From positions 6,002,874 through 6,066,873 of the forward strand of contig JAOANR010000001.1 in the NCBI GenBank assembly GCA_030278955.1: DNA of 64,000 nt, given 5' to 3'. This DNA comes from Hygrophila difformis. Lineage: Eukaryota > Streptophyta > Magnoliopsida > Lamiales > Acanthaceae. Positions 3,782-17,787 of this stretch are shown piece by piece. The notes beneath the pieces are model-generated. The model made no database searches and had not been told where the DNA came from. It saw only the letters and a list, made by a program, of their open reading frames with translations. The position numbers were made by a program, and so were the translations under genes. Numbering within the stretch: the stretch's first letter is position 1; every line of letters starts with the position of its first letter.

Positions 3782-4912
3782 TTAGTAATTTACTACTCCA
3801 CTGGGATAATAATTGAGGGCACGTGAGGGAAGGGTATGGGTAAATCAGTAAATGAAGAAACTTGTCTAGGGTTGCATTTGCAATCTACTTACTGGTAAAA
3901 TAAAAAAACATTGGTGCGCGGGAGAAACATGAATACTCACTCTTATCTTAGGTTATTTTTATTAAAAGATTTACTCTTTAAGCCATGATTTGAATTACAC
4001 ACATTTGTGATTGAATTATGTTTCAGAACGCCATGATATATCACCCCCAAAAAAAAAAAATTGCCATGATATATATGTTGACACATCATCAATATCAGCA
4101 GTATGGTTGAACCGACTTTATGTTTGAATTTTTAATTTAAACTTATTTCTATTAAAATGATAGTAATAGACAAATAGAAGTAAATCATTCAAGTGAGCCC
4201 AGTGGTATGGAAAATATAAAATACACAAGTACCATATCTCTTTGGGAGGGAGGCCAGGCCACGGCGGCGGCAGGTTGATGGTGGTGTTTTTGCTTTTAAA
4301 TAAATCGGGGCCAATTATTATTAACATATACTAGTACTTCTACTACAACTCTAGTAACTTATTGCTAGTACAGTATTATTTTCTTAAACTGTAGTAGTAA
4401 CAAATATCCCCTCTTAGATTTGAGATGGGATAGGTGACCTTTTCAAGATTATAGGTATGGACTCGTGCTTTTGGATTTCGTTTTGGTCTTTTGTTTGTTT
4501 CCCCCTTGATTAATGCAAACACTTCTCTAATTGGGGCCCATATGGGCTTTTCGGTGCCATATTGTCACATGGGGTACTCAATCTAGGCTTGTAATAATAA
4601 TTGTTTCATGTGTTTTGCTTTGGTGTTTTCCCATTCCCAACTTCTTCTCGGCTAATCCTGTATTTACGTATATGTCCATAAGTTATACTAATAATCACAC
4701 AATTCAAAAAAAAATGTACTATATAAATATAACAAATTTGGTCTTATATAGAATTCTCAAGTTATAGAAACAACTACTACAAAATGATAGTATTAAAAGT
4801 TTTAAAAAATATTCCTACTAATATACAACTTTTTTAAAGGAAAAAAAAAAGAGTTTATATTGTGAATATAATAGGAACCCATTTTGAACTTCAGTTATTG
4901 AAAAATACTAAG
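3782..4912. other. Intergenic, no feature seen
   Basis: AT-rich sequence with only short chance open frames. No exon, RNA gene or clear repeat could be supported. Confidence 0.5.
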
Positions 4913-5224
4913 ACTACGGTCATCCATGACCCAACTCAACTCAATCTTTCAATATAATATTAATTTCTCTCTCCTCCCCTACAGAACTCACAATCAATTT
5001 TAATTTCTACTACCATCAATAACCCAACCCAACACAATCCAACTCAATTCTAAATACATATTTATAATTAAAAATAATTATTTGCACATTCATTACCCTC
5101 TCATGATTTGAGGTTGGCCATCTAACCTAAGTCATTGAGAGTCATGGCTTTTATATAATTTTTATTATTTATTTCTTGTGTTTTTTCTTATGACCCCCAC
5201 TTCGGGGTCATGAATGGTTATAGC
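4913..5224. mobile_element. Possible short MITE with imperfect inverted ends
   Basis: The left end (ACTACGGTCATCCATGACCC) and the reverse complement of the right end (GCTATAACCATTCATGACCC) resemble each other. The interior is low-complexity and CAACTCAA-rich, as in many small non-autonomous elements. CTAAG stands beside both ends and may be a short target duplication. The inverted repeat is imperfect, so this is tentative. Confidence 0.35.
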
Positions 5225-5540
5225 CTAAGGGGAAAATTGCGCTTGAAATAGTCGAATTTTGTTGACATTCTATCTGATTTTTATAGTAAGCAATTTCAAG
5301 TAATTTTTAACTATTACTATAAGGAAAATTATTTAAAAAACCCCCAACACCACCAACTTATTCCTCCAAAATACCCACACAAATTTTTATTCCTTTCAAC
5401 CCCCTGGAGAGAAAAAATTTTCAAAAAATCCCCATTTTACCCCTAAATAACCAAATTAAGGAAAATAATGCCTAAAAATGATTCAAATGAGTTTAACACT
5501 TCTCTAAAAAGTGCCCAAAAACACACCCCCTCTAAAAAAT
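5225..5540. other. Left flank of the viral insertion; boundary uncertain
   Basis: Contains an AC-rich stretch (about 5338-5540) leading directly into the primer-binding site. It cannot be decided from the sequence whether the last 200 bases are viral non-coding DNA or host DNA, because no second copy of the viral circle is available in the window for comparison. Confidence 0.4.
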
Positions 5541-5552
5541 TGGTATCAGAGC
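5541..5552 (+). promoter_or_regulatory. tRNA-Met primer-binding site
   Basis: TGGTATCAGAGC is the canonical 12-base complement of the 3' end of plant initiator tRNA-Met, used by Caulimoviridae (and some Copia elements) to prime minus-strand DNA synthesis. It stands 22 bases upstream of the first viral ATG. The match does not extend clearly past the twelve bases. Confidence 0.88.
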
Positions 5553-5574
5553 ATAAGTTGCGATTTTAGGGCTT

Positions 5575-5829
5575 ATGGCTAATGACGGATTAAAAGATAA
5601 TCAAAACACAATTAAATTAAATGACAATATTAATTACGAAAAATTTTTAATAATTGATATTGAAAAGAAAAGGCTATTCAAAAACCAAACTAAAGATTGT
5701 AAGATCTGTAAACAAAATAAAATAAAAATCAAAAGAATAAAACTCAAGAAAAATAGAACTTTTAAAAATTATTGCAAACTAATCGTAAGATTAGAAGCTT
5801 TAAGACAACACTTAAAAACTCATGAATAA
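5575..5829 (+). CDS. EVE small ORF 1, basic Cys/His-containing protein (84 aa)
   Basis: First ORF after the primer-binding site. It encodes an 84-residue, strongly basic, Lys-rich protein with a Cys-X2-Cys pair (DCKICKQNK, about residues 42-45), a further Cys in the C-terminal third and a C-terminal His-X3-His (HLKTH), together suggesting a small zinc-binding or nucleic-acid-binding module. I do not recognise a family. Its stop overlaps the start of the next ORF by 8 nt, so both are probably translated from one polycistronic RNA. By position it parallels the small first ORF of badnaviruses, but similarity is not evident by eye. Confidence 0.72.
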   Translation: MANDGLKDNQNTIKLNDNINYEKFLIIDIEKKRLFKNQTKDCKICKQNKIKIKRIKLKKNRTFKNYCKLIVRLEALRQHLKTHE

Positions 5830-6223
5830 AATGTTAACAAATAAAAACATGGATATACAAAGAAGTCTTCAATCAATTGAAGCAAAATTAGATAAGTTAG
5901 AATTATTAGGAAAACAAAATAATACAAATCTTAAAGTAATATTAGAAAACCAAACATACTTATCAACCCAGTATGATAAATCATCCAGTGGAATGAAAAA
6001 CTTATCTAAAACCATAACAACACTTCAATATGAAAGTTCTAAACTAGTTAATGATATCCCAAATCCGAGAAAAATCATTAACCATAGTGAGGAATTAAAA
6101 CAACTACAAGATAAGGTTGAAAAACTTGATAAAGAGATAAAGGAAATTAAAAATATTGTTGAAAACAATATTGAAAATGTAAATGAAATGTGTAACAAAA
6201 TTATAAAAATCATTAAAGGATAA
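5822..6223 (+). CDS. EVE small ORF 2, coiled-coil protein (133 aa)
   Basis: A 133-residue protein made mostly of heptad-like helices: residues about 10-35 (SIEAKLDKLELLGKQ) and 90-133 (ELKQLQDKVEKLDKEIKEI). Small coiled-coil proteins with DNA- or virion-binding roles are common in Caulimoviridae (virion-associated proteins), so a structural role is plausible but inferred. The ATG at 5822 lies inside the end of ORF 1. The stop codon (6221-6223) shares its last A with the ATG of ORF 3 (TAATG), an arrangement typical of termination-reinitiation. Confidence 0.75.
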   Translation: MNKMLTNKNMDIQRSLQSIEAKLDKLELLGKQNNTNLKVILENQTYLSTQYDKSSSGMKNLSKTITTLQYESSKLVNDIPNPRKIINHSEELKQLQDKVEKLDKEIKEIKNIVENNIENVNEMCNKIIKIIKG

Positions 6224-6702
6224 TGGAAACAGCTTTGAAAGAGGTTAAAGAAACAATAGAAAACTTCAAACAAGAAATTAATAATAAATTCAAAGAATTA
6301 AACAAAGAATTAGTAGAAATAAAGCTAAATGTTAATAATCTTCATAAGAAGATTGGCGAAATAACAGACCATAATAAAACAAATAATACAAATATTAGTC
6401 TAATTGACAAGAAAATAAAAGAGCTTGTAACAACTGAAATACTAAAGAAAAAAATTGATGATGTACATGTTCAAATGGAAAACATGAAAAAATATCAAGA
6501 CCCTGCATTAAGAATAGCCATTGAAAGCATAGATGAAAAACTTGAAAGAATACAAGCTGTTAGAATACCTGAAGATAATACAATAAAACAACTAGCTGAA
6601 CAAATTGCAAAATTACCTGCAGAAGCTAGAAGGAAAACTAAACCACAAGAAAAACTAAACTTCTGGGTTGTAAAACCAGACGAAAAATATTTACAAAAAT
6701 GA
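6223..6702 (+). CDS. EVE ORF 3, probable virion-associated coiled-coil protein (159 aa)
   Basis: A 159-residue protein with a long N-terminal coiled coil (residues 1-95, rich in E/K/N/I/L heptads) and a basic, proline-containing segment near the C-terminus (about residues 135-145, LPAEARRKTKP). Coiled coil plus basic tail is the layout of badnavirus ORF2 and caulimovirus virion-associated proteins, which bind nucleic acid and capsid. That assignment is by architecture and position only. The start shares one base with the ORF 2 stop. The stop overlaps the next ORF in ATGA (6699-6702). Confidence 0.78.
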   Translation: METALKEVKETIENFKQEINNKFKELNKELVEIKLNVNNLHKKIGEITDHNKTNNTNISLIDKKIKELVTTEILKKKIDDVHVQMENMKKYQDPALRIAIESIDEKLERIQAVRIPEDNTIKQLAEQIAKLPAEARRKTKPQEKLNFWVVKPDEKYLQK

Positions 6703-7664
6703 GTAGGAGATCATTTTCTCTTACTAATGAATCCAAAAACAGTCTAGTAGAAAGGAGTAATTCTCAAAGGATTGAAAGCTCAAACTTTGAAAAAACCTTA
6801 ATAGATAGAATGTTCAGAGAAAAAACCAAACTTGAAGAAGGGCCAACAATAATTGAAGAAATAATTGACCCTGATATTGAATTTGAAAACTTCAAGAAAA
6901 GAACATTAATCCAATTGGAACCAAGATTATTGTATGACCAAAGATTCCTTAATTGGAACACAGGATATTACAAATATCATTATACGGAACCAATAAGCTG
7001 TCTAAAAGATGACAAAAAATTAATAAAATTAATAAGCAATAATGAAGCAATTAGGCTTCAAAGACAAGGACAAAAATACATGCATATGGGATTAATCTCC
7101 ATAGGAGTAAAAGGTTTAACTAGAAAAAACTTAGGAACTAAAGTCCTAATGACTGTTCTAGATACAAGGTGGACTAATCCAACCCAAGCTATCATAGGAT
7201 TAATGGAAATTGATATGAACCCTAATGTGGGAGTATGTTATTTGGCACCAGATTATATGATACAAATAACAGATTTTATGAAGCATATCCAAATAGGAAT
7301 TCAAACGGTAGGATATGAAGAAATGGAAACTGGTCACAACCTAATGGTATGTGTAGGCTTCTTAGGAAGAATCACAAACAATGGCCAAACCAGGCATAAA
7401 ACAAAAATTGAAACTGTGGTAAGTATCATAGGAAGTGAAGGAGTAAAAATGATAGGACCAACTGAAATATCATCAGAAGAAAATGCTGGGAAAAATTGGG
7501 ATCTATCAAAATTCTTTGAAAAACCAAATGTTAAAAATTTAACTCCAAAAAATGTAAATTACTTCATTAACTCTAGAGGAGAAACGTCAGTAAGGTTTAA
7601 CGATTATGAAACTGCAAAACGACCAATAGATTTTACAGAAGAAGAAGGTCAGGAAAATGAATAG
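6699..7664 (+). CDS. EVE movement protein (30K superfamily), separate ORF
   Basis: A 321-residue protein whose central part (about residues 115-260) has the conserved core of caulimovirid cell-to-cell movement proteins: a GLISIGVKGLTRKNLGTK segment, a DTRWTNPTQAIIG motif and a following beta-rich region. The pattern most resembles the movement domain at the N-terminus of badnavirus polyproteins. Here, however, it ends in its own stop codon (7662-7664), overlapping the next ORF's ATG at 7657 by 8 nt. The movement protein enlarges plasmodesmata for virus spread. The frame is intact from an ATG in the ATGA overlap with ORF 3. Confidence 0.87.
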   Translation: MSRRSFSLTNESKNSLVERSNSQRIESSNFEKTLIDRMFREKTKLEEGPTIIEEIIDPDIEFENFKKRTLIQLEPRLLYDQRFLNWNTGYYKYHYTEPISCLKDDKKLIKLISNNEAIRLQRQGQKYMHMGLISIGVKGLTRKNLGTKVLMTVLDTRWTNPTQAIIGLMEIDMNPNVGVCYLAPDYMIQITDFMKHIQIGIQTVGYEEMETGHNLMVCVGFLGRITNNGQTRHKTKIETVVSIIGSEGVKMIGPTEISSEENAGKNWDLSKFFEKPNVKNLTPKNVNYFINSRGETSVRFNDYETAKRPIDFTEEEGQENE

Positions 7665-10600
7665 ACAAATGAAAAGGTTTATTGTAGAAAAACCAATAAC
7701 AGATAACTATGTAAAATATGAAGGAAAACATATATTCCACCCTAGTGAAGATGAAGTGGAAAGAATTGCTAAAGACATTCAACATATTTGTTTAAAAACA
7801 AGAAAATTTGAAAACTTTAAGAAAGGAAAAATTCTAAATAAAAGAGAGTACCATGACAGATATGAAAGAGTTTTCTCACAACATGTGCATTCTGCACTAA
7901 CTAAAAAATTCAAAAACAAAGGAATATTACCTCATAATTGTCAAGATTGTAAAATTGATCTTGATAGAAGATATTCTGATAAGTTAAAACATATGATCCA
8001 TTTAATAGAATGTCCAAAACATAGTGGATATTTTGAGAATTGGATAGAAAATTATGAAGAAATGATAAGAGAAATATCAAAACTAAATGAACAAAAACAA
8101 GAATTAAAGGATAAAATGAAAAGAAAAAATAAAGAATGGAAGAATAATTTAGAAGATATTATTGAGAAAGAAGTACAGAAAAGATTACAAAAAATACAAA
8201 TAAATGAAGAACAACAAGCAGATATAGAAGCTCACTTGTTCTTAAAGAAAAACTCACCAGAAGAAGGACAAAGTTCTGATAATATATTAATGGAACAATA
8301 TATGGGAGACCATATCTCCTTACATTCTGAGAAAACAAATAAAACAGCTAAAGAATTCATGAACAAAGATGTTGTCATGAAAAATACAGGAGACAGTATA
8401 ACAAGAGTCCCTGGAACTCCCTTTGCCCCATACCAAAGAGGGACTGAGTGGAGACCTGGAACTAATTATACTGGAAACAATTCTAGACACTCAATCACAC
8501 ATGTTCATCCAGAATATCCTTATGGAAAAATACAACCTGGGATGATAACAAAACCTAGAGGAATTAGGCAACCTTTAGAAAGAGGATATTATCATAACCC
8601 AGCAATATTAGAAGTAACAAATGTAAGCCCTCAAGAATGGGGCTCAGTAATTGCAAAATGGAAAAACATAGTTGTAGCTGATTACATCAAAAACAAAAAT
8701 GATTATAATGATACAGCTGAATCAATGTATGGATATCTTGAAACCTATTTAGGAGAATTCGCACAGTCAATGTGGGAAGTATTTAAAAGAGATTATCCAA
8801 TGGATTATCAAGACTTAATAGAAAGAGGACCGAATCCTTATAACTTTGTAAATAAAATATCAAGTCTAATAACAGGTGAAGATGGTAATTCAGGACATAT
8901 AACAACACAAATGGATGCCTTAATCCATCTAGACCAAATGCACCTAGATGACTTATATGGAACAGTAGACTTCTTGAATGAGTATGTCTACTATACAGGC
9001 CTAGCAGGAGGAGCTTTTAACCAAGAGTTAGGTGAAAAATTATTTATGAAAATACCAAGACCAATTGGTCAAGAAATTCAAGATACATGGAATAAAATGG
9101 TTGAAAAGAATCCCCAACAATACACTATTAGTATGAGGGCTGTTCATGTGGTAAAAATATTAAAAGATAAGTGTACAAATATAATTGCACAAAAACAACT
9201 TAAGAAAACTGATTATTCATTCTGTAAAAGAATATACACTCCTCAACGATATGGTAGGCCGGAACCATTAAGGAAAAAACCCAAATTCATAACAAGAAAG
9301 AAGTATTTTATAAAACAATCAAATAGCAGAAAACCTTTCTTGAAACAAAAACATCACGTCAGAAAATATAATCCTAGTAGAAATTATACAAAGAAACTTG
9401 CTTGTTTCACATGTGGTGATGAAAGCCATTTGGCAACAGCATGTCCTAAAAGAAAAAACCAACATTCAAGAGAAGCAATTCTTACAGAATGTATACAACA
9501 AGATATATTGGATGTAGACTCAGATGTTTCTGAGACTGAAACAATATATAGCATAGTAACAGTGGAAGAAAATGTTATGGAAGAACAAGGGGATGATGAT
9601 CCCTATGAATTGATTAATATGCTTGCAAATGAAAACTCATATAATGGTATCACATATAAAGAGTATATGATGCCATATGAAACTGAGTATATGATGAGAG
9701 AAATTAATGAATGCGAAAACCATAATTGGCTTTTCAGGGTAGGCACTGATTCTACACCTTGTATAAAATGCTCTTATTACCCATCAAGAAAACTTAGAGC
9801 TAAATGTACAATATGTCATGTAGAAATATGCCAAATATGCTTGTTAAAATATTATAAAATTAAATTCCCCGAAGAAATGCCAATAACAAAAATTGATGAT
9901 AATTATACATTCATCACAAAAAGAATAGATATAATAGAAAGAAAACTTTTTGATTTACAAGATATAATGAATCCTAAGGAATTAAAAACCAGAATTGAAA
10001 ACATAGAAGAAATCTTAGAAGAATATAATATGTTGAGTCCTAAAAATACGGAAAATAAAGGAAAAGAAGTTCCTGAAGAAGAATCTAATGATAAACAAAA
10101 TCCTAGTACAGAGTATATGTTAGCACAAAACCCTGAGTACATACCTGTGTGCCAAGATCCTTCATCATTAACTACATTAAGGGTACCAATAATCTTTAAA
10201 TTAAGAGAATTGGTATTTCGTACTAATGCAATAATCGACACAGGATGTACAAGAATAATAATAAATGAGAAACTTATCCCAGAACATTTACAGAAAAACT
10301 TAGCAAAACCTATTAAATCAGAATTAATGGATGGAAGAATATCATATACAACAAAACAACCTATTTCAGGTGGACAAATATTCTTTGAAACCAATTGTGG
10401 AATATCAGAACCCTATGGAGTTCCTGATAATTCATATATAAAAGACTTAGTAATAAATGCAGATGTAATCTTAGGATTACAATTCTTCTTACAAAATAAT
10501 GGAGGATTATTTATTACAAAGGATTATATCCAAATTGTTGAAAAAGCAACTTTGGCAATGTTTGCACCTAGTATTAGTAATGCGGGAACCAAGCTTTTAA

Positions 10601-12384
10601 CAACATCAGAGTTGCGAGAGAAGCGTGGTGGAGCCCCTACTAATACAAAAACAAAAAATAAAAAACTTTTAAAAGATAAAGATATTGAAAATTGTAAATG
10701 CAAAATAAAAGGAGCATGTAAACAAACTTGTAAAGAAAACATACAAATTACAGAGTTTGAAGAAGAATACATTCCTGAAACTCCAAAACTGAAAGAATTG
10801 ATAAGTATAACTAGATTTAAGCCTGAAGAAACCATAACAAAATGGATTGAGAGGTTAGAAAAATCCCAAATTATAGGAGATAACATCCAGAAATATTGGG
10901 AAAAAGATGGAACAATATGTAAGCTTGAAATAATAAATCCAGAATTAAGAATCTCAACTGCAGAAATAAATCCTACAAATCTGGATATAGCAGATTTCAA
11001 AATGCATATTGATGAATTAAAAACTTTAAAAGTAATTAGAGAATCAAACTCCAGACATAGGTCTGCAGCTTTTATTGTGAGAAAACATTCTGAAATTGTA
11101 AGAGGAAAATCAAGAATGGTCATTAATTATAAAAGACTCAATGACAATACAAAAGATTTTGCTTACAACATACCAGATAAAACAGTCTTAATAAATAGGA
11201 TTCAAGACTCAAAAGTATATAGCAAATTTGACTGTAAGTCGGGATTCTGGCAAGTAAAAATGCATCCTGAGTCAGTTGAATGGACTGCATTCACATGTCC
11301 AGAAGGTTTATTTGAATGGTTAGTAATGCCATTTGGACTAAAAAATGCACCAGCTATATTTCAACAAAAAATGGATAAAATTTTCAAACCATACCAAAAA
11401 TTTGTTTTGGTATACATTGATGATATTCTAGTATTTTCAAAAAATAGTACTGAACATATGAGTCATCTTGATACAGTGTTTAGGCTATTTGAAAAACATG
11501 GAATAATCATCTCAAAGAAAAAGATGGAAATTAATAAAACTAAAATAGCATTCCTTGGGGCAGAAATTGGAAAAGGAAAAATAAAACTCCAAGATCATAT
11601 TGCTAAAAAGGCTATTGAATTTCCTGATAAAATGGAAGATACAAAACTATTACAACAATTTTTGGGATTGGTTAATTATGCTAGACCATACATTAAAAAC
11701 TTATCCTCATTAACAGGATCATTATATAACAAACTGGGAAAAAACGGTCAAAGATATTTTAATCAAGAAGATATAAAAAATGTACAAAAAATTAAAGAAG
11801 CATTAAAAACACTTCCAGAATTGGTTTTACCAGAAGATAGTGATTATCTTATTGTGCAAACTGATGGATCACATGAAGGATGGGGAGCTATCCTTTTGCG
11901 AAAAAAGGATGTCTACTCACCTAAAAGTAAAGAAGAAATTTGCCAATATGCATCAGGAAAATACAGAGAAAAGGGTAACCTTTCCTCGATTGATGCAGAA
12001 CTATTAGCAATAAAGTACGCACTTGATAAATTTGAACTGTTTTTAACAGGAAAACCAGGATTCACAGTAAGAACTGATTGTGAAGCCATAGTAAAATTTC
12101 ATAGCCAACTCCAAGAAAAAAGATCAATGTCTAGGAGAAGGTGGTTGAATTTTACAGATGTTATTAGTCAGAAAGGCTACAAAATAAAATTTGAACATAT
12201 TAAAGGAGAAGATAACAAAATTGCTGATATACTATCTAGAATTCTGATTAAAGAAAGGGAAAAACCATTATATGACACTGAATTTAAAAACGAATCAATT
12301 GATAATTATGATGAAAATGATGAGGAAAAATATAAATTAAAATGGGATCAATTTTACAGGGAGGATTGGAATATTGAGAATTGA
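7657..12384 (+). CDS. EVE polyprotein: capsid, protease, reverse transcriptase, RNase H
   Basis: One uninterrupted 1575-codon frame. The N-terminal 580 residues contain a helical region and the capsid-like domain (about residues 310-520). A retroviral-type zinc knuckle follows (C583, C586, H591, C596). A second cysteine region at 702-728 has the exact spacing CX2CX11CX2CX4CX2C described for badnaviruses. The aspartic protease active site is D861-T-G. Reverse transcriptase spans about 1120-1340 with YIDD at 1253-1256. RNase H has the expected acidic residues D1403, E1448, D1474 and D1524. In related viruses the protease cuts the polyprotein into capsid protein and replicase. No movement domain is present at the N-terminus because it is encoded upstream. 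No stop, frameshift or missing catalytic residue was seen, which is unusual for an old insertion. Confidence 0.95.
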   Translation: MNRQMKRFIVEKPITDNYVKYEGKHIFHPSEDEVERIAKDIQHICLKTRKFENFKKGKILNKREYHDRYERVFSQHVHSALTKKFKNKGILPHNCQDCKIDLDRRYSDKLKHMIHLIECPKHSGYFENWIENYEEMIREISKLNEQKQELKDKMKRKNKEWKNNLEDIIEKEVQKRLQKIQINEEQQADIEAHLFLKKNSPEEGQSSDNILMEQYMGDHISLHSEKTNKTAKEFMNKDVVMKNTGDSITRVPGTPFAPYQRGTEWRPGTNYTGNNSRHSITHVHPEYPYGKIQPGMITKPRGIRQPLERGYYHNPAILEVTNVSPQEWGSVIAKWKNIVVADYIKNKNDYNDTAESMYGYLETYLGEFAQSMWEVFKRDYPMDYQDLIERGPNPYNFVNKISSLITGEDGNSGHITTQMDALIHLDQMHLDDLYGTVDFLNEYVYYTGLAGGAFNQELGEKLFMKIPRPIGQEIQDTWNKMVEKNPQQYTISMRAVHVVKILKDKCTNIIAQKQLKKTDYSFCKRIYTPQRYGRPEPLRKKPKFITRKKYFIKQSNSRKPFLKQKHHVRKYNPSRNYTKKLACFTCGDESHLATACPKRKNQHSREAILTECIQQDILDVDSDVSETETIYSIVTVEENVMEEQGDDDPYELINMLANENSYNGITYKEYMMPYETEYMMREINECENHNWLFRVGTDSTPCIKCSYYPSRKLRAKCTICHVEICQICLLKYYKIKFPEEMPITKIDDNYTFITKRIDIIERKLFDLQDIMNPKELKTRIENIEEILEEYNMLSPKNTENKGKEVPEEESNDKQNPSTEYMLAQNPEYIPVCQDPSSLTTLRVPIIFKLRELVFRTNAIIDTGCTRIIINEKLIPEHLQKNLAKPIKSELMDGRISYTTKQPISGGQIFFETNCGISEPYGVPDNSYIKDLVINADVILGLQFFLQNNGGLFITKDYIQIVEKATLAMFAPSISNAGTKLLTTSELREKRGGAPTNTKTKNKKLLKDKDIENCKCKIKGACKQTCKENIQITEFEEEYIPETPKLKELISITRFKPEETITKWIERLEKSQIIGDNIQKYWEKDGTICKLEIINPELRISTAEINPTNLDIADFKMHIDELKTLKVIRESNSRHRSAAFIVRKHSEIVRGKSRMVINYKRLNDNTKDFAYNIPDKTVLINRIQDSKVYSKFDCKSGFWQVKMHPESVEWTAFTCPEGLFEWLVMPFGLKNAPAIFQQKMDKIFKPYQKFVLVYIDDILVFSKNSTEHMSHLDTVFRLFEKHGIIISKKKMEINKTKIAFLGAEIGKGKIKLQDHIAKKAIEFPDKMEDTKLLQQFLGLVNYARPYIKNLSSLTGSLYNKLGKNGQRYFNQEDIKNVQKIKEALKTLPELVLPEDSDYLIVQTDGSHEGWGAILLRKKDVYSPKSKEEICQYASGKYREKGNLSSIDAELLAIKYALDKFELFLTGKPGFTVRTDCEAIVKFHSQLQEKRSMSRRRWLNFTDVISQKGYKIKFEHIKGEDNKIADILSRILIKEREKPLYDTEFKNESIDNYDENDEEKYKLKWDQFYREDWNIEN

Positions 12385-12401
12385 ATAATATTGTTACAGG
12401 A

Positions 12402-13847
12402 ATGGCAGAAAACTCCCAGAAAAATTCTTTGAAAATCAGCAATGAAAATGGAGTAAAAACCACAGGGATGGTGAAAACCCCAGAGGGATATTACACAATC
12501 CCTTCTAAAACCAGCATCCCAGAAGGGAAGAAAAAAGATAAACTCCCAGAAAAAGGAGTGAAAATCTGCTTTGGCAAAAGAGCAGAAACAGGCAATAATG
12601 TAGAATTAATCTTATTTGATAACATGAAGTACAGGCCTATCACAGGGTTGAACTACACAGAGGAACAGATCTGCCTTTGTGATAACATCTGGAGAGCATC
12701 ATTTGACAAAAACAACAGCAGGTATATTGTTACTTGTCTCTCTGCTTTAAGCATGTATTTCCAGAAATTCAATAACATAAAACCATTTTTATATTATGTA
12801 ATATATGAAGGTTATAAAAAAGGAATTTATGATAAAAATGATATTTTACCTCTTAATGAAGATAATGAAAAACCTCTTCATAAAGGATTTTATGACATAA
12901 TGTCTGCAATTCAATTTGCAAAAACCACAATGGGCCCAGATTTCTTTGTAAGCCCAAGTTTGAAAAACATTGTTGATGGTTTGAGGCCAAAAACCCAAAA
13001 TCCTACAGGCCCAGTCCAATATTCAATTGAACATTCTTCTAAAACTCACATTGTGTTTTGTGACCATTGTGAAAAAATGGCCAAGGAAGTCTGTAAATAT
13101 GAAGCCCAAAAGGCCGAATGGTTACAGAATTTTGAAAACCAAAAAATGAAAACCCTTGAAGCAGAGGCCCAGATTGAAACCCTCACCAAGAAACTTGAAA
13201 TCCTTCAGAACCAAAATGAGAAATTGACCTCAAAAATTGTGTCCCTTACACTCAAAACACCAAAGCCAGAAGAAAAACCAGTCTATGGTCCAGAACCCAA
13301 ACCCACCAGTTCTATGACTGCAGTAGAATTGGCAAAAGCCTGGATGCAGCAAAACCAGGAAAATTCAACTCCTGAGATCTTTAAGGATCAAAAGTTTGAA
13401 TCTAGTCCGTCTCAAACGGCAGACGGTAAAGACGAATCAAGTCCGTTGATAGCTGATGCTTTGCTAAAAAGCATAAGTTCAGATAATTTTGAACCAAACC
13501 AGGGAAGTTCTAACCCTGAGGTCTTTGAGGACCAAAATGTTGAACTAAGCCCATCTAGTCCGGTAGATGGTAAAAGCACATTAATTCCGGTTATGGCTGG
13601 TAGTTTGCCAAAAACTATGAGTCCAGTACAGACTGGAAAATTTGAGAACCTCAGTGAAGAAGAAATTCTTCATAAGCTTGAAATGGAATTTAAGCCTACT
13701 TTTGCTGAAGCAATGGCAACCAGAAAAAATGGAAGGTTTAGTGCACTGGTAGCACTAAAGAAAAATGAAGCAAAATTCCAGGCCAATAAAATCATAAAAA
13801 ATCAGAAAAAAGAAAGTGGCGGCCCCCACAATGATGAAGAGTACTAA
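12402..13847 (+). CDS. EVE viroplasmin / translational transactivator (481 aa)
   Basis: The open frame begins at a TTG (12381) next to the polyprotein stop, but the first ATG is at 12402, 17 nt after that stop, giving 481 residues. Residues about 131-185 hold the viroplasmin (RNase H1 N-terminal-like) signature: YVIYEGYKKGIY, then HKGFYDIMSAIQFAK and the downstream GPDFFVSP. A coiled coil (about 215-275) and a low-complexity Ser/Pro/Glu region with an internal repeat (PEIFKDQKFESSPS and PEVFEDQNVELSPS) follow. In caulimoviruses this protein forms inclusion bodies and allows ribosomes to reinitiate on polycistronic viral RNA, which matches the overlapping ORFs upstream. Badnaviruses lack it, so its presence beside a badnavirus-like polyprotein is notable. 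Confidence 0.87.
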   Translation: MAENSQKNSLKISNENGVKTTGMVKTPEGYYTIPSKTSIPEGKKKDKLPEKGVKICFGKRAETGNNVELILFDNMKYRPITGLNYTEEQICLCDNIWRASFDKNNSRYIVTCLSALSMYFQKFNNIKPFLYYVIYEGYKKGIYDKNDILPLNEDNEKPLHKGFYDIMSAIQFAKTTMGPDFFVSPSLKNIVDGLRPKTQNPTGPVQYSIEHSSKTHIVFCDHCEKMAKEVCKYEAQKAEWLQNFENQKMKTLEAEAQIETLTKKLEILQNQNEKLTSKIVSLTLKTPKPEEKPVYGPEPKPTSSMTAVELAKAWMQQNQENSTPEIFKDQKFESSPSQTADGKDESSPLIADALLKSISSDNFEPNQGSSNPEVFEDQNVELSPSSPVDGKSTLIPVMAGSLPKTMSPVQTGKFENLSEEEILHKLEMEFKPTFAEAMATRKNGRFSALVALKKNEAKFQANKIIKNQKKESGGPHNDEEY

Positions 13848-14193
13848 GGGAGCCACGCAGAAATGAGCTGGAATTCACAATAAATACCAGCATGTGGAGG
13901 AAGGAATTCTGAAAAGAAAAAAGTCAAGAAGAAAACAAAATGTTAGTGGAACCAAAAGCACTACCAACCATGTGAAAGAAGGAATCCAAGGCGGATAAAA
14001 CCAAAAGGCAGACAAGAGCCATGTGACTCTTGGAAAACCACGTTAATGGGCACTAGGCCCCTCTTTACTACATTATTATATGGTTGCATTATTGTACTAG
14101 TTGTTTGATTTTTCATCCGAACTTTATCGGATAACTTTGCCACTTGGCACGTTTTTATTGGTTGTTGTGGATTACTTAGATGACATTCCCATC
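13848..14193 (+). promoter_or_regulatory. EVE intergenic region upstream of the TATA box
   Basis: Non-coding region between the transactivator stop and the TATA box, where caulimovirid full-length-RNA promoters lie. No individual activator site could be assigned with confidence. Confidence 0.5.
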
Positions 14194-14201
14194 TATAAAT
14201 A
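14194..14201 (+). promoter_or_regulatory. EVE pregenomic RNA promoter TATA box
   Basis: TATAAATA in the context ATCTATAAATAGAGGG, in the intergenic region after the transactivator. Transcription would be expected to start about 30 bases downstream, near 14225-14235, in a CA-rich, then CT-rich initiator region as in other plant pararetroviruses. Confidence 0.8.
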
Positions 14202-14335
14202 GAGGGATGGTCTTCACTTGTAACACACACACTCACTTTGCTCTCTCTCTTTCTTAAGGTTTTTGAGACTGCACTCTTGCTACTCTCGAAAGCTATTTCT
14301 CTCTCTAATTCTCTTGTATTCCCAACCCTTTCAGT

Positions 14336-14341
14336 AATAAA
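14336..14341 (+). terminator. EVE polyadenylation signal
   Basis: AATAAA stands 142 bases after the TATA box. In Caulimoviridae the signal sits just downstream of the promoter, so that RNA polymerase passes it once at the start, then stops at it after a full circle, giving a terminally redundant RNA. The spacing here fits that scheme. Confidence 0.75.
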
Positions 14342-15001
14342 ATTTCAGTTTGTAAAGAAAGACCCGGTGTGGATTGCTTCCTCTTTTCTTTACTTTCTGA
14401 AATACAGGGGCCCGTCTGAACGGGAAAGCCTCTCCTCTCTCAAGGTATGGGTTAGTTTATGATTTATGTTATGGTATGATTGTTCTATGTATGGATGATA
14501 ATGTTATAAACATAAATATGTAACCTTTTAAAACTTAATTGATGAGATATGCCATTAGGGGAGTAAGATAAAAATTTAAAAGGCTTTATGCCATAAAAGC
14601 TGTAAGAAAGACTCGTTAGGGGAACCACAATTCAGGGATGTTTGTTAAACATAATGGTGTTTTGTTACTGTTGTCCCTTTTGATTTGCCCCTTAGACCCC
14701 CTGCTTACATTTCAGATCTAGGTCTGGATAATGCTAATTTGAATTTGAAACCCGAAACAGGCCCAGAAAAATATCTCATCAGTGACAGTAATAAGAGGAT
14801 TGCGGACTTAATGTTTATGATAATATTTCCATAACAAAGGACAATCGGACCCATAACACATAATCAGAAATTTAACACGACCAAGAGAACAATAGGAGAT
14901 GGCAAGTACCTAGTAAGACATCACGACATATAAGTTTTTCGCGTACAGAAAATCAGTGTTTTAAAACCTTTTGAAATAATTAATATCATTTGTCAAAACA
15001 A
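14342..15001 (+). other. EVE RNA leader with possible intron
   Basis: About 660 bases of leader between the polyadenylation signal and the next ORF. Its open frames start with TTG and are not taken as genes. A good donor (CAAG|GTATGG, 14445) and a pyrimidine-rich acceptor (TTACATTTCAG, ending 14715) could excise 271 bases. Leader splicing is known in some plant pararetroviruses, but here it is only a prediction. Confidence 0.45.
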
Positions 15002-15424
15002 ATGGAGAATATGACTAAAACCACTAAAAACCCTAAAACAGATGTGTTTAAAACAGAATCTTTTAAAAACACAGAAACAAGATTTGTTATTGTACCTTAC
15101 CCGAAAACACACTTTCTATGCCAAGAATGTGAAAACTGGCTTACTAGACTGATGAATAAACAAAATCAAATAAACCAGGTTTGCAGAGAACAAAGATTAT
15201 TTGAAAATATTATAAAATGGAAAGTGACTAAAGAAGTTGAATTTCTAAAAAATGAACTAGAAATTCTAGAAAACAGTTATCAAAAGCACATAAGAAACTA
15301 TAAGGTTTTAGAAAAACTACGAGATAACCATATTGAAAAGTGTGAAAACCATTTTATAACCTGTGAACTCGAAGAAAAAATATGGAAAAAATTACAAGAA
15401 GAACATTTAGCAAGAAATAACTAA
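15002..15424 (+). CDS. EVE post-leader ORF A, helical Cys-containing protein (140 aa)
   Basis: The frame is open from a TTG at 14990; the first ATG at 15002 gives 140 residues. An N-terminal CX2C (HFLCQECENW, near residue 40) is followed by a long charged helical or coiled-coil region and a second Cys pair (KCENHFITC, about residues 114-122). No family recognised. Codon use matches the other EVE ORFs and the next ORF begins 7 nt after the stop, so it looks like part of the viral cistron series rather than captured host DNA. On the circle it precedes the primer-binding site. Confidence 0.65.
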   Translation: MENMTKTTKNPKTDVFKTESFKNTETRFVIVPYPKTHFLCQECENWLTRLMNKQNQINQVCREQRLFENIIKWKVTKEVEFLKNELEILENSYQKHIRNYKVLEKLRDNHIEKCENHFITCELEEKIWKKLQEEHLARNN

Positions 15425-15431
15425 TTGGGAA

Positions 15432-15746
15432 ATGGAAGCACAAATACTTTTTGATATTTGCCCAGAATGTGGAAAACTTGGAGAAACCATGTGGAAAATT
15501 GAAAAGGAAATAAAAGATCTTAAAGACACAATTGTAAGGTTAACAGAATATAAAGAAGAAGAAAAAGAAGAAGCACATGAACTCATATATGTGTTAAACC
15601 GTGACGAAGAAATAAAAACTATTCTAAATTCGGTATACATATATGAAGAAGTTATAAGCTACCAAGCAACGGACCTCAAAACAAAAATAGAGGAGCTAAA
15701 AACTTCTAAAACGAACTTTATTAATCATATCAAAAATCAACATTAA
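15432..15746 (+). CDS. EVE post-leader ORF B, CX2C plus coiled coil (104 aa)
   Basis: A 104-residue protein starting with a CX2C element (FDICPECGKLGE, residues about 7-14), followed by a continuous charged coiled coil (EKEIKDLKDTIVRL to the end). It resembles ORF A in design (N-terminal Cys pair, then helices), so the two may be diverged duplicates. That is inference. It is spaced 7 nt after ORF A and 2 nt before ORF C. Confidence 0.63.
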   Translation: MEAQILFDICPECGKLGETMWKIEKEIKDLKDTIVRLTEYKEEEKEEAHELIYVLNRDEEIKTILNSVYIYEEVISYQATDLKTKIEELKTSKTNFINHIKNQH

Positions 15747-15748
15747 AA

Positions 15749-16003
15749 ATGACTTATAAAACAATAAGAGATTTTAGTAAAAGGGAAAAAATTGCGATTG
15801 AAAGATATCGCATTAAAAAAGAAATTATTAGAATACAACTAGAATCAAAAATAGAATGTCTACAACTCTTAAACAAGAAAGGTCTCATAGAAGAACTAAT
15901 GGATGTAACCTTGTGGCTTAACCGAGAGGCCAGAAAATTGAGAAACTGGGAAAGCAACTTAGACCAAGAAAGAAAAGAAAAGCAAGTTAATTGTACTGGT
16001 TAA
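15749..16003 (+). CDS. EVE post-leader ORF C, small basic helical protein (84 aa)
   Basis: An 84-residue, Lys/Arg/Glu-rich, probably all-helical protein with no recognised domain. The ATG lies 2 nt after the ORF B stop. It is the last ORF before the right end of the insertion. In the circular virus it would be followed by the primer-binding site now at 5541. Confidence 0.58.
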   Translation: MTYKTIRDFSKREKIAIERYRIKKEIIRIQLESKIECLQLLNKKGLIEELMDVTLWLNREARKLRNWESNLDQERKEKQVNCTG

Positions 16004-16007
16004 TCAT

Positions 16008-16031
16008 AAAAAAAAAAAAAAAAAAAAAAAA
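16008..16031. repeat. A24 homopolymer at the right end of the EVE
   Basis: A run of 24 A begins four bases after the ORF C stop. It may mark the junction with host DNA or be a viral A-tract. The following 250 bases contain phrases such as GGGGTATATTTGTCAA that look like host intergenic DNA. Confidence 0.7.
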
Positions 16032-16463
16032 TTAAACTGCTCAAATATCCAGAAAAGATATTGAATTTTAGCACAAAAGTACTAAAATCAGAACAATATG
16101 TATAGAAGAGGTAAAACAAATGTAATGAACTTAACCAGGGGTATATTTGTCAATCCGACACTCTCTCTCCACCATGAAAGCGACATCAGGTACCTAAAAG
16201 GAATAAAAATTCCTATAGGTACTGAACAAGTAAGAAATGATGGATGGGAGGTATTTTTCTGTAACTTGCCCTTACTATAAAGGACCAATTAGGTATGGTT
16301 CTATAGTTTTAGTAGTACTAAATTTGTTTCTCCTTCTTTAATCCTGTGGCACTAAGCATTTCTAGATATTAAATATTCCCAGGATGTATTTTTAAATTCC
16401 ATTGTTTTTTCAATATATGATGAAAATATTAAAATACACTATGTCATTTGTTAATTAGTAGTA

Positions 16464-16700
16464 CTTCCTCTGTTTTTTAAAGATCGCTACGGACACACCC
16501 ATCACGCAGTCCAATGCACATTTTAAACCATTAATAACTCAAATTCGGTACATGTAAAAATTCTAAAAGTTCGATATTTAAAAAGTACAAGACGAGACGA
16601 ATCTAACAAGATCCCACTTGACTATATTTTAACTTGTATAACCATAATAAAAATTTAAGTCAAAGTATATGAATGAGCAGTAGTCATTTGTCAAACATAG

Positions 16701-16738
<38 letters not shown>

Positions 16739-16746
16739 GGAGGAAG
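16464..16746. mobile_element. Stowaway-like MITE, family A
   Basis: Starts CTTCCTCTGTTTTTT and ends in AACCGGAGGAAG, both flanked by TA, the Tc1/mariner target duplication. The interior shares the family-A core (ACGCAGTCCAATGCACATTT, then AACCATTAATAACTCAAATTC) with copies at 35471, 47698 and 51324. It contains an A-run of about 33 bases near its right end (about 16704-16736). Confidence 0.82.
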
Positions 16747-17787
16747 TATAATGCTGGATATAGTACTTACAATCCTTCTTCATTCAGTTCCTTCATATTT
16801 TAAAATATAAATCAGGTATGACCAAGAGAACATTGAAACCAGCAAAATAGTTGAAAGGCAATTGGAAAGATATGAGTATTGAATGGAATCAACAAACCCT
16901 TCATAAAGTTTTATGCGCAACCCTTCATAAAGTTAAAAACAACCATGCATACATATTATTGTTACTGTTGCTAGTAATAATTTTTCGGCCGAGTCAAGAT
17001 AGAGTAGAAATTTTCCTTGAAAACTTGTTGGCGCAATCAATGCATTAATTAATTATGCATTTAATTATTTTCCGCTGTCCAGGATATTAATACACAGCAT
17101 ATACTAGTATGATTAAAATTAAATTGTATCCAGATATATTATGATCGAAATGATTATGCTATAAATTATTAAATTTTTAGTGGAAAATTATTTTTAAAGG
17201 AAAAAGTACGTGTGTAGCCGTGAAGGATCTAAAATAAGTATTTAATTAATAGAATCGATTTGGCAGAATAACGTGTAGATTCAAATAAATACTGAATACA
17301 GTATATTGATTAACACTATTTATTTATTTATTTACTTACTTAATTATTTATGTTGTGATGTCCCTGCAGGTTTGATTGGTGGGGGTGTGGGGGGACGGGA
17401 ATTTAGGGGGTTATTTTGGGATGCTAATTATGGAACCGCCACGAATCCTACGCCGTAATCAACTCTTTGGGTAATGCCATGGCAATTAAGTTAATATGCA
17501 TACTATTTTTAGTCAGCATTTGCAGAGGTGTTGTAGTGAAGAGTCCAGTGTGCTACAATAATAAAAGTCCAGCTATAATACCAATTAATGGTGTGCAACA
17601 TTTCCAAACGAAGCCATTTAATGCAAATGGGAAGAGAATTTGTTTGTCCCCAATTATTGGATAATTATACCAAATTAGTGGACGCAATTAAGTGAATGTT
17701 TAGTAACTTCCAAAAGCATAATGTATCAGTTACGGATATTTTGGTGATGCAATTTTGATACCGGAAAAAAAAAGCAGGCCATTCGAC
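16747..17787. other. Intergenic, no feature seen
   Basis: AT-rich DNA. A 65-codon frame at 17467 begins with a hydrophobic segment but lacks homologous features or splice partners and is not annotated. Confidence 0.5.

What the first reader, a model, noticed from the sequence alone, without database searches (positions are those of the whole stretch)
5541..16003. A nearly complete endogenous pararetrovirus with nine open reading frames and about 10.5 kb
All viral domains (movement, capsid, zinc knuckle, protease, reverse transcriptase, RNase H, transactivator) and both promoter and poly(A) signals occur once, in order and without a visible stop or frameshift. Most plant EVEs are fragmented. 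At roughly 10.5 kb it would be larger than the caulimovirid genomes I know of (about 7-10 kb). Seen: nine ORFs. Known: Caulimoviridae domains. Inferred: recent insertion and possibly an undescribed genus.
Basis: partly seen in the sequence, partly recalled or inferred. Interest (0 to 1): 0.95.

Follow-up and report, generated by a model that had tools for sequence, protein, structure and literature searches.

The report
Plant pararetrovirus with DNA-transposon ends
This stretch of plant DNA is a complete-looking virus of the cauliflower-mosaic family carrying the end repeats and 9-base target footprint of a cut-and-paste DNA transposon, which suggests how such a virus, lacking an integrase of its own, could insert itself whole and repeatedly into its host's chromosomes.

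Summary
The finding is real but is not a lone, accidental insertion. The window copy is one of a large family: 150 of 150 scored coat-domain matches (of 1681 candidates) pass the cut-off, 61 of them in a stop-free frame of 1579-1591 codons. The element is 5323-16271 (10,949 bp), not 5541-16003, with imperfect terminal inverted repeats and an exact 9-bp target-site duplication. Of 20 further copies, 19 gave both ends; 17 of 19 show an exact 9-bp duplication. Of 35 paired type-A copies, 32 are 10.93-11.08 kb long. Fixed ends, inverted repeats and 9-bp duplications are the signature of Mutator-like DNA transposons. Every ORF tested is under constraint, most of all movement protein and RT-RNase H (ratios 0.01 and 0.03 for shared variants; the 488-aa ORF was not tested). 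Near-identical cores carry different end blocks. That points to a replicating virus, probably with a circular phase in which both ends form one exchangeable block, inserted by a transposase acting in trans. No transposase partner was found: 43 of 46 genome searches did not complete. The host is of Lamiales by one protein. The nearest named virus is 55% identical in RT-RH.

The parts
5314..5322 (.). left target-site duplication TTACTATAA
   Evidence: identical to 16272-16280
5323..5489 (+). 5' end block with terminal inverted repeat (type C), GGAAAATTATTT...
   Evidence: boundary shared by copies; inverted match to the 3' end 50 of 80, 0 of 1000 shuffles as good
5490..5540 (+). start of the conserved viral core, leader before the primer site
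   Evidence: AGTTTAACACTTCTC... shared by all end types
5541..5552 (+). tRNA-Met primer binding site TGGTATCAGAGC
   Evidence: exact match; exact in 20 of 20 rows of the 5' alignment and in 25 of 30 type-A loci (the sets overlap)
5575..5829 (+). ORF, 84 aa, small protein with CxxC motif
   Evidence: ratio 0.17 for shared variants
5822..6223 (+). ORF, 133 aa, coiled-coil-like
   Evidence: weak coiled-coil matches only; ratio 0.08
6223..6702 (+). ORF, 159 aa, coiled-coil-like
   Evidence: weak matches only; ratio 0.09
6699..7664 (+). movement protein, 321 aa
   Evidence: PF01107 E 7.8e-10; ratio 0.01 for shared variants
7657..12384 (+). polyprotein, 1575 aa: coat, weak zinc knuckle, aspartic protease, RT, RNase H; no integrase match
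   Evidence: RT-RH ratio 0.03, coat part 0.16
12381..13847 (+). 488-aa ORF (TTG start), viroplasmin/transactivator-like
   Evidence: no Pfam match above cut-off; matches P0011, which bears PF01693, 8e-28; constraint not tested
14194..14201 (+). TATA box TATAAATA of the presumed genomic-RNA promoter
   Evidence: read directly
14336..14341 (+). AATAAA poly(A) signal, 142 nt behind the TATA box
   Evidence: read directly
14990..15424 (+). ORF, 144 aa (TTG start), CxxC and coiled-coil-like
   Evidence: ratio 0.27 for the part tested
15432..15746 (+). ORF, 104 aa, CxxC and coiled-coil-like
   Evidence: ratio 0.31
15749..16003 (+). ORF, 84 aa, last gene of the core
   Evidence: ratio 0.23 with only 10 of 31 sequences usable
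16008..16031 (+). A-rich linker of variable length between core and 3' end block
   Evidence: varies among copies
16032..16271 (+). 3' end block with terminal inverted repeat ...AACTTGCCC
16272..16280 (.). right target-site duplication TTACTATAA

Best explanation
It is an endogenous copy of a caulimovirid that carries the ends of a Mutator-like DNA transposon. Shown: fixed ends, imperfect terminal inverted repeats, 9-bp target duplications, high copy number, strong constraint on viral genes among copies, and different end blocks on near-identical cores. Inferred: the virus replicates as a circle by reverse transcription; in the circle the 3' and 5' ends lie side by side as one block of about 0.4 kb; a Mutator-type transposase supplied in trans by the host genome recognises that block, opens the circle there and inserts the whole 11-kb genome into AT-rich 9-bp targets. 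A single chromosomal copy has its promoter 2 kb from its 3' end and no terminal repeat, so it could give full-length genomic RNA only after excision and re-circularisation.
For: Ends and duplications: exact 9 bp in 17 of 19 copies with both ends; mispaired flanks exact in 1 of 342. With one automatic boundary rule the count was 14 of 19; it became 17 when the leading C of type-B ends was counted to the element. Exact in 6 of 10 further copies with shorter frames (one of the six is a run of A) and in the window copy. Length 10,928-11,080 bp in 32 of 35 type-A pairs. Inverted repeats 49-51 of 80 identical, 0 or 1 of 1000 shuffles as good. Constraint: shared variants 35 synonymous to 2 not in movement protein, 57 to 6 in RT-RH; pairwise dN/dS against the window 0 to 0.067. 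End types A, B and C sit on the same core at the same junctions, and 5' and 3' types match in the 19 copies with both ends (by eye). Copies at least 99.1% identical in RT-RH carry A, A', C or C' ends, and type-B copies c05 and c06 share a 3'-ORF cluster with type-A copies. MULE duplications are 8-11 bp (PMC6446971, passages). No terminal direct repeat or LTR; no integrase or transposase match in 8 of 9 ORFs.
Against: No autonomous Mutator element with these ends was found; the searches for one did not complete. In 30 of 30 loci fetched (of 61 matches) the type-A end leads into viral core, so no stand-alone transposon with exactly that end has been seen. No circle junction was seen, because that search did not complete either. 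One copy with both ends intact (L095/L105) has unlike flanks, so no duplication. Five of 40 type-A 3' ends have no exact 5' partner. The 20 copies for MP and RT-RH were chosen for a long polyprotein frame, which favours young copies. The promoter-to-primer distance in the circle would be about 2.3 kb with three ORFs between, which is odd for the family (recalled).
Confidence: 0.65

Rival explanations
1. Passenger model: a caulimovirid was captured once between the ends of a Mutator-like element (a Pack-MULE) and the copies spread only as a DNA transposon; the viral genes are cargo.
For: Fixed ends, inverted repeats, 9-bp duplications; near-identical copies.
Against: Cargo should evolve neutrally, but shared variants show ratios of 0.01 (movement protein) and 0.03 (RT-RH). 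Different end types on the same core at the same junctions need repeated double exchanges at ends 11 kb apart.
Confidence: 0.16
2. Virus-owned integration: the ends and the enzyme both belong to the virus, one of the small ORFs or an unrecognised polyprotein part being a new recombinase with 9-bp staggering.
For: Type-A ends were seen only on viral copies, 30 of 30 examined of 61; several small constrained ORFs have no known function.
Against: The small ORFs are 84-159 aa and mostly coiled-coil-like, too small for a typical DDE transposase (recalled); no Pfam match above cut-off in those scanned (the last 84-aa ORF was not scanned). Several diverged end types would have to be recognised by one enzyme.
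Confidence: 0.12
3. Ordinary endogenous pararetrovirus: viral DNA captured by end joining or with the help of LTR retrotransposon machinery, then copied by segmental duplication.
For: These are the two widely held hypotheses for the family (PMC10377300 section 3.1 and PMC4241990, passages).
Against: PMC4241990 describes nearly all such sequences as fragmented and rearranged; here ends, length and 9-bp duplications recur, flanks at the insertion points differ between copies, and no LTR is present.
Confidence: 0.03

Closest known systems
Endogenous caulimovirids of the Yendovirus/Orendovirus group (PMC5766536, PMC13308828)
   Same: RT-RH 63-69% identical to Oryza and Lolium sequences and 66% to Cornus florida, over 240-377 aa; that the Oryza and Lolium rows are orendoviruses is my inference. 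Coat, protease, RT, RNase H.
   Different: I saw no mention of transposon-like ends or 9-bp duplications in the sections and passages read; I did not have the reference sequences to compare genome plans.
Dioscorea nummularia-associated virus (nearest named virus in the best 120 matches)
   Same: Family-level domains; RT-RH 55%.
   Different: Its contig is 8139 bp; separate branch in the tree.
Mutator-like elements (MULEs)
   Same: 9-bp target duplications, inverted repeats, fixed ends.
   Different: No transposase match inside; the content is a whole virus under selection.
Teratorn (piggyBac-herpesvirus fusion in fish, PMC10175614)
   Same: A virus genome joined to a cut-and-paste transposon; called the first such fusion with a DNA virus (passages).
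   Different: Herpesvirus, 180 kb, with a piggyBac-like transposase; here an 11-kb reverse-transcribing plant virus with ends of Mutator type and no transposase found.

Membership tests
Caulimoviridae | RT, RNase H, A3B protease and caulimovirus coat domain in one polyprotein | tested here: met
   (polyprotein given as three pieces of one unbroken ORF)
Caulimoviridae | 30K movement protein | tested here: met
   PF01107 E 7.8e-10
Caulimoviridae | tRNA-Met primer binding site | tested here: met
   exact 12-mer at 5541
Caulimoviridae | no integrase | tested here: met
   none matched in 8 of 9 ORFs scanned
Caulimoviridae | circular dsDNA genome in virions | not testable with these tools
   only chromosomal copies held
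Yendovirus/Orendovirus endogenous group | RT aa similarity above the 62% group threshold of PMC13308828 | tested here: inconclusive
   63-69% to Oryza/Lolium over 240-377 aa; reference sequences not held
Mutator-like elements | 8-11 bp target-site duplication | tested here: met
   9 bp in 17 of 19, in 6 of 10 and in the window; absent in one complete copy
Mutator-like elements | terminal inverted repeats | tested here: met
   49-51 of 80 identical; imperfect
Mutator-like elements | Mutator transposase inside (autonomous member) | tested here: not met
   no transposase match in 8 of 9 ORFs, so at most a non-autonomous member
Mutator-like elements | autonomous partner with the same ends in the genome (non-autonomous member) | not tested
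   searches not answered; type-A end seen on viral copies only, 30 of 30 examined of 61

The most novel reading that the evidence does not exclude
A temperate pararetrovirus: its circular genome doubles as a transposon circle with abutting ends, so that integration by (host) Mutator transposase, and perhaps excision back to the circle, is a regular part of its life cycle, and it swaps end blocks to use different transposon families of its host.
Probability: 0.42. Interest if true: 0.96.

Novelty: new variant of a known kind. Interest (0 to 1): 0.9.

Why it matters
How caulimovirids, which lack an integrase, enter chromosomes is called speculative in the review seen here (PMC10377300, section 3.1, passages); the same review mentions an earlier suggestion that a transposon-derived integrase might be hijacked. 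This family gives a concrete, testable answer for one lineage: precise insertion with the footprint of a DNA transposon. If the circular phase is confirmed, it would be a plant virus that moves between an infectious and a chromosomal state, and a reverse-transcribing counterpart to the herpesvirus-transposon fusion Teratorn. In the listings of eight paper searches (titles and abstract starts, 25 of 94 and 10 of 53 papers listed in the two largest) I saw no pararetrovirus with transposon ends; most subscription papers, and bioRxiv preprints, are not held.

Tried and rejected
Terminal redundancy (more than one genome unit): the two 84-aa ORFs at either end looked like a repeat, but their sequences differ and no direct repeat other than an A run was found. 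LTR retrotransposon: no LTR. Chance primer site: with up to 2 mismatches the window has 4 hits against 3.35 expected, but only the 5541 hit is exact. Relatives in viral contigs: no pattern match. Movement-protein relatives: one protein, 36% over 65%. Empty target sites among fetched sequences: the one spanning match, L026/L046, is that copy's own flank, so there was no result. Stand-alone end blocks elsewhere in the window: only short, chance-level matches.

Not answered: the searches for Mutator transposase (PF10551), for type-B ends and for circle junctions. The genome search was reported busy in 43 of 46 tries; it answered. In between I waited with sleeping scripts and worked with other tools.

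Results against the reading: no transposase partner and no circle junction; 5 of 40 type-A 3' ends without an exact 5' partner; 2 of 19 copies without an exact duplication at the boundary used. Of the 10 copies with shorter frames, 6 show the duplication (one a run of A); L095/L105 has both ends but unlike flanks; L090 has lost its first bases; for L091 and L098 the 3' end was not in the stretch fetched. In 1 of 20 copies (c19) the 5' end and the movement gene were not found in the stretches fetched. Rows dropped for poor coverage: the 3' 84-aa ORF kept 10 of 31 sequences, the other small ORFs 28-31 of 31; MP 20 of 21, RT-RH 21 of 21, coat part 9 of 9. In each set 0-4 copies have a stop or frameshift.
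Full report
What was checked. Pfam identifies movement protein, coat, protease, RT and RNase H; the zinc knuckle is below its cut-off. The 488-aa ORF is viroplasmin-like only through relatives P0011 and P0017. A primer site for tRNA-Met is exact at 5541; TATA and AATAAA stand at 14194 and 14336. Five minus-strand ORFs of at least 70 aa overlap 4500-17500; only the longest (199 aa, 10524-11123) was tested and has no Pfam match at E 0.001. The surroundings include a DUF642 gene and a ferredoxin-thioredoxin reductase gene whose best named relatives are Paulownia (78%), Phlomoides (74%), Andrographis (77%) and Salvia (76%). Paulownia is of the order Lamiales, the others too by recall, so the host is probably a member of Lamiales. 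That rests on one protein.

It is a family. The host genome (915 Mb) gives 1681 first-look candidates for the coat domain; 150 were scored and all 150 pass the cut-off, 61 with a stop-free frame of 1579-1591 codons. Counts are lower bounds, and unscored candidates may be other elements. Pairs of copies reach 99.9% in RT-RH and 100.0% in the movement gene, gaps aside, so some insertions are young.

The ends. I fetched the 5' and 3' surroundings of 20 copies with long frames. In 19 copies both ends were found. An automatic boundary at the first GG(G)AAA and the last CCC gave exact 9-bp duplications in 14 of 19; with the leading C of type-B ends counted to the element it is 17 of 19. Mispaired flanks agree in at least 8 of 9 bases in 6 of 342 and in all 9 in 1 of 342. 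Of the two misses, one is a run of A with 8 identical bases, the other has 9 if the boundary is set one base further out. The window copy has TTACTATAA on both sides of 5323-16271. Of 10 copies chosen for shorter frames, 6 show the exact duplication (one is a run of A), one has both ends but unlike flanks, one has a damaged 5' end, and in two the 3' end was not in the stretch fetched. The flanking 9-mers are 94% A+T. The first 80 and last 80 bases are inverted repeats with 49-51 identities; 0, 1, 0 and 0 of 1000 shuffles match that in types A, B, C (window) and C (L025). The type-A 22-base end occurs 61 times in the genome against 0 for its reversed control. Of 40 scored type-A 3' ends (of 90 candidates), 35 pair with such a 5' end, 32 of them at 10,928-11,080 bp; the other three measure 9478, 9924 and 18,884 bp.

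What kind of ends. Target duplications of 8-11 bp mark Mutator-like elements, and several plant groups have 9 bp (PMC6446971, passages). Most LTR elements give 4-6 bp (PMC12440569, passages) and have LTRs, absent here. I therefore read the ends as Mutator type; the enzyme itself was not seen. No transposase matched inside.

Virus or passenger. Among the copies, variants seen at least twice are mostly silent once the number of sites is allowed for: movement protein 35 silent to 2 not, RT-RH 57 to 6; the other pieces tested have ratios of 0.08-0.31. Variants seen once have higher ratios in every piece tested (0.09-0.71), though only slightly for the first ORF (0.19 against 0.17), as expected if some arose after insertion. 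The first three ORFs were tested on copies picked by their end sequence, not by frame; MP and RT-RH on copies picked for long polyprotein frames, a bias towards young copies. Not tested: the 488-aa ORF and most of the N-terminal half of the polyprotein. Constraint on the movement protein is hard to explain for a transposon cargo or an intracellular retroelement, and suggests cell-to-cell infection (inference).

Exchangeable ends. Three end types occur. By eye, A and C are diverged relatives and B looks unrelated. All join the viral core at the same places, before AGTTTAACACTTCTC and behind the last stop codon. In the 19 copies with both ends the two types match (by eye). The window, c09, c15, c17 and c18 are at least 99.1% alike in RT-RH but bear C, A, A', C and C' ends. 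Copies c05 and c06 with B ends share a 3'-ORF cluster with A copies c01, c02 and c12. In a linear transposon such swaps need two exchanges 11 kb apart; in a circle the two ends form one block of about 0.4 kb. This, with the internal promoter and the lack of terminal repeats, is my case for a circular phase. It is inference.

Place among known viruses. In a tree of 37 RT-RH rows (36 picked from 120 listed) the window falls with Cornus florida and unnamed contigs (SH-aLRT 84, fork left open), beside Oryza and Lolium sequences, outside badnaviruses, the dioscovirus and Agapanthus tungrovirus. Best identity is 67% to an unnamed contig, 55% to a named virus. Genus-level novelty is undecided, because the references of the published endogenous groups were not available.

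Mechanism proposed, with status. Shown: precise, repeated insertion with 9-bp duplication. Likely: a Mutator-type transposase in trans. Inferred: a circular viral genome with abutting ends as substrate, replication by reverse transcription between insertions, exchange of end blocks by recombination between co-replicating genomes. Unknown: excision, present activity, infectivity.

Literature seen. A survey and a review describe integration of caulimovirids as probably accidental, with loci often near TA repeats and mostly rearranged, or as helped by retrotransposons; the review also mentions a suggested hijacked transposon-derived integrase (PMC4241990 and PMC10377300, passages). Teratorn is called the first fusion of a cut-and-paste transposon with a DNA virus (PMC10175614, passages). 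Of PMC13308828 I read sections 6, 7 and 9 and passages, of PMC5766536 and PMC12440569 passages. In the listings of eight searches of the held library I saw no pararetrovirus with transposon ends.

Noticed in passing
window 14194-16271 and 5323-5552: If the genome is a circle, three ORFs and about 2.3 kb lie between the presumed RNA start and the primer site, an unusually long way for this family (recalled); the primer site lies behind, not before, these genes.
   Followed up: no
window 5575-5829, 12381-13847, 14990-15746: Four proteins share a CxxC motif, in three of them followed by a coiled-coil-like stretch (CKIC, CDHC, CQEC, CPEC), as if they were duplicated from one another; seen by eye only.
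   Followed up: no
window 16008-16031 and other copies (L029-L048): The linker between core and 3' end block is a microsatellite-like A-, TAAA- or TAA-rich stretch of very variable length.
   Followed up: partly
window 16462-16750: A small inverted-repeat element (TACTTCCTC...GAGGAAGTA with a 33-A run), Stowaway-like by recall, lies just beyond the virus.
   Followed up: no
L001-L004 (G000 C9, C5, C1, C9): Copies with a coat domain closer to the Pfam model (91.5 bits) seem to form a diverged lineage; one of them (L001, ends in L097/L107) has type-A ends and an exact 9-bp duplication.
   Followed up: partly
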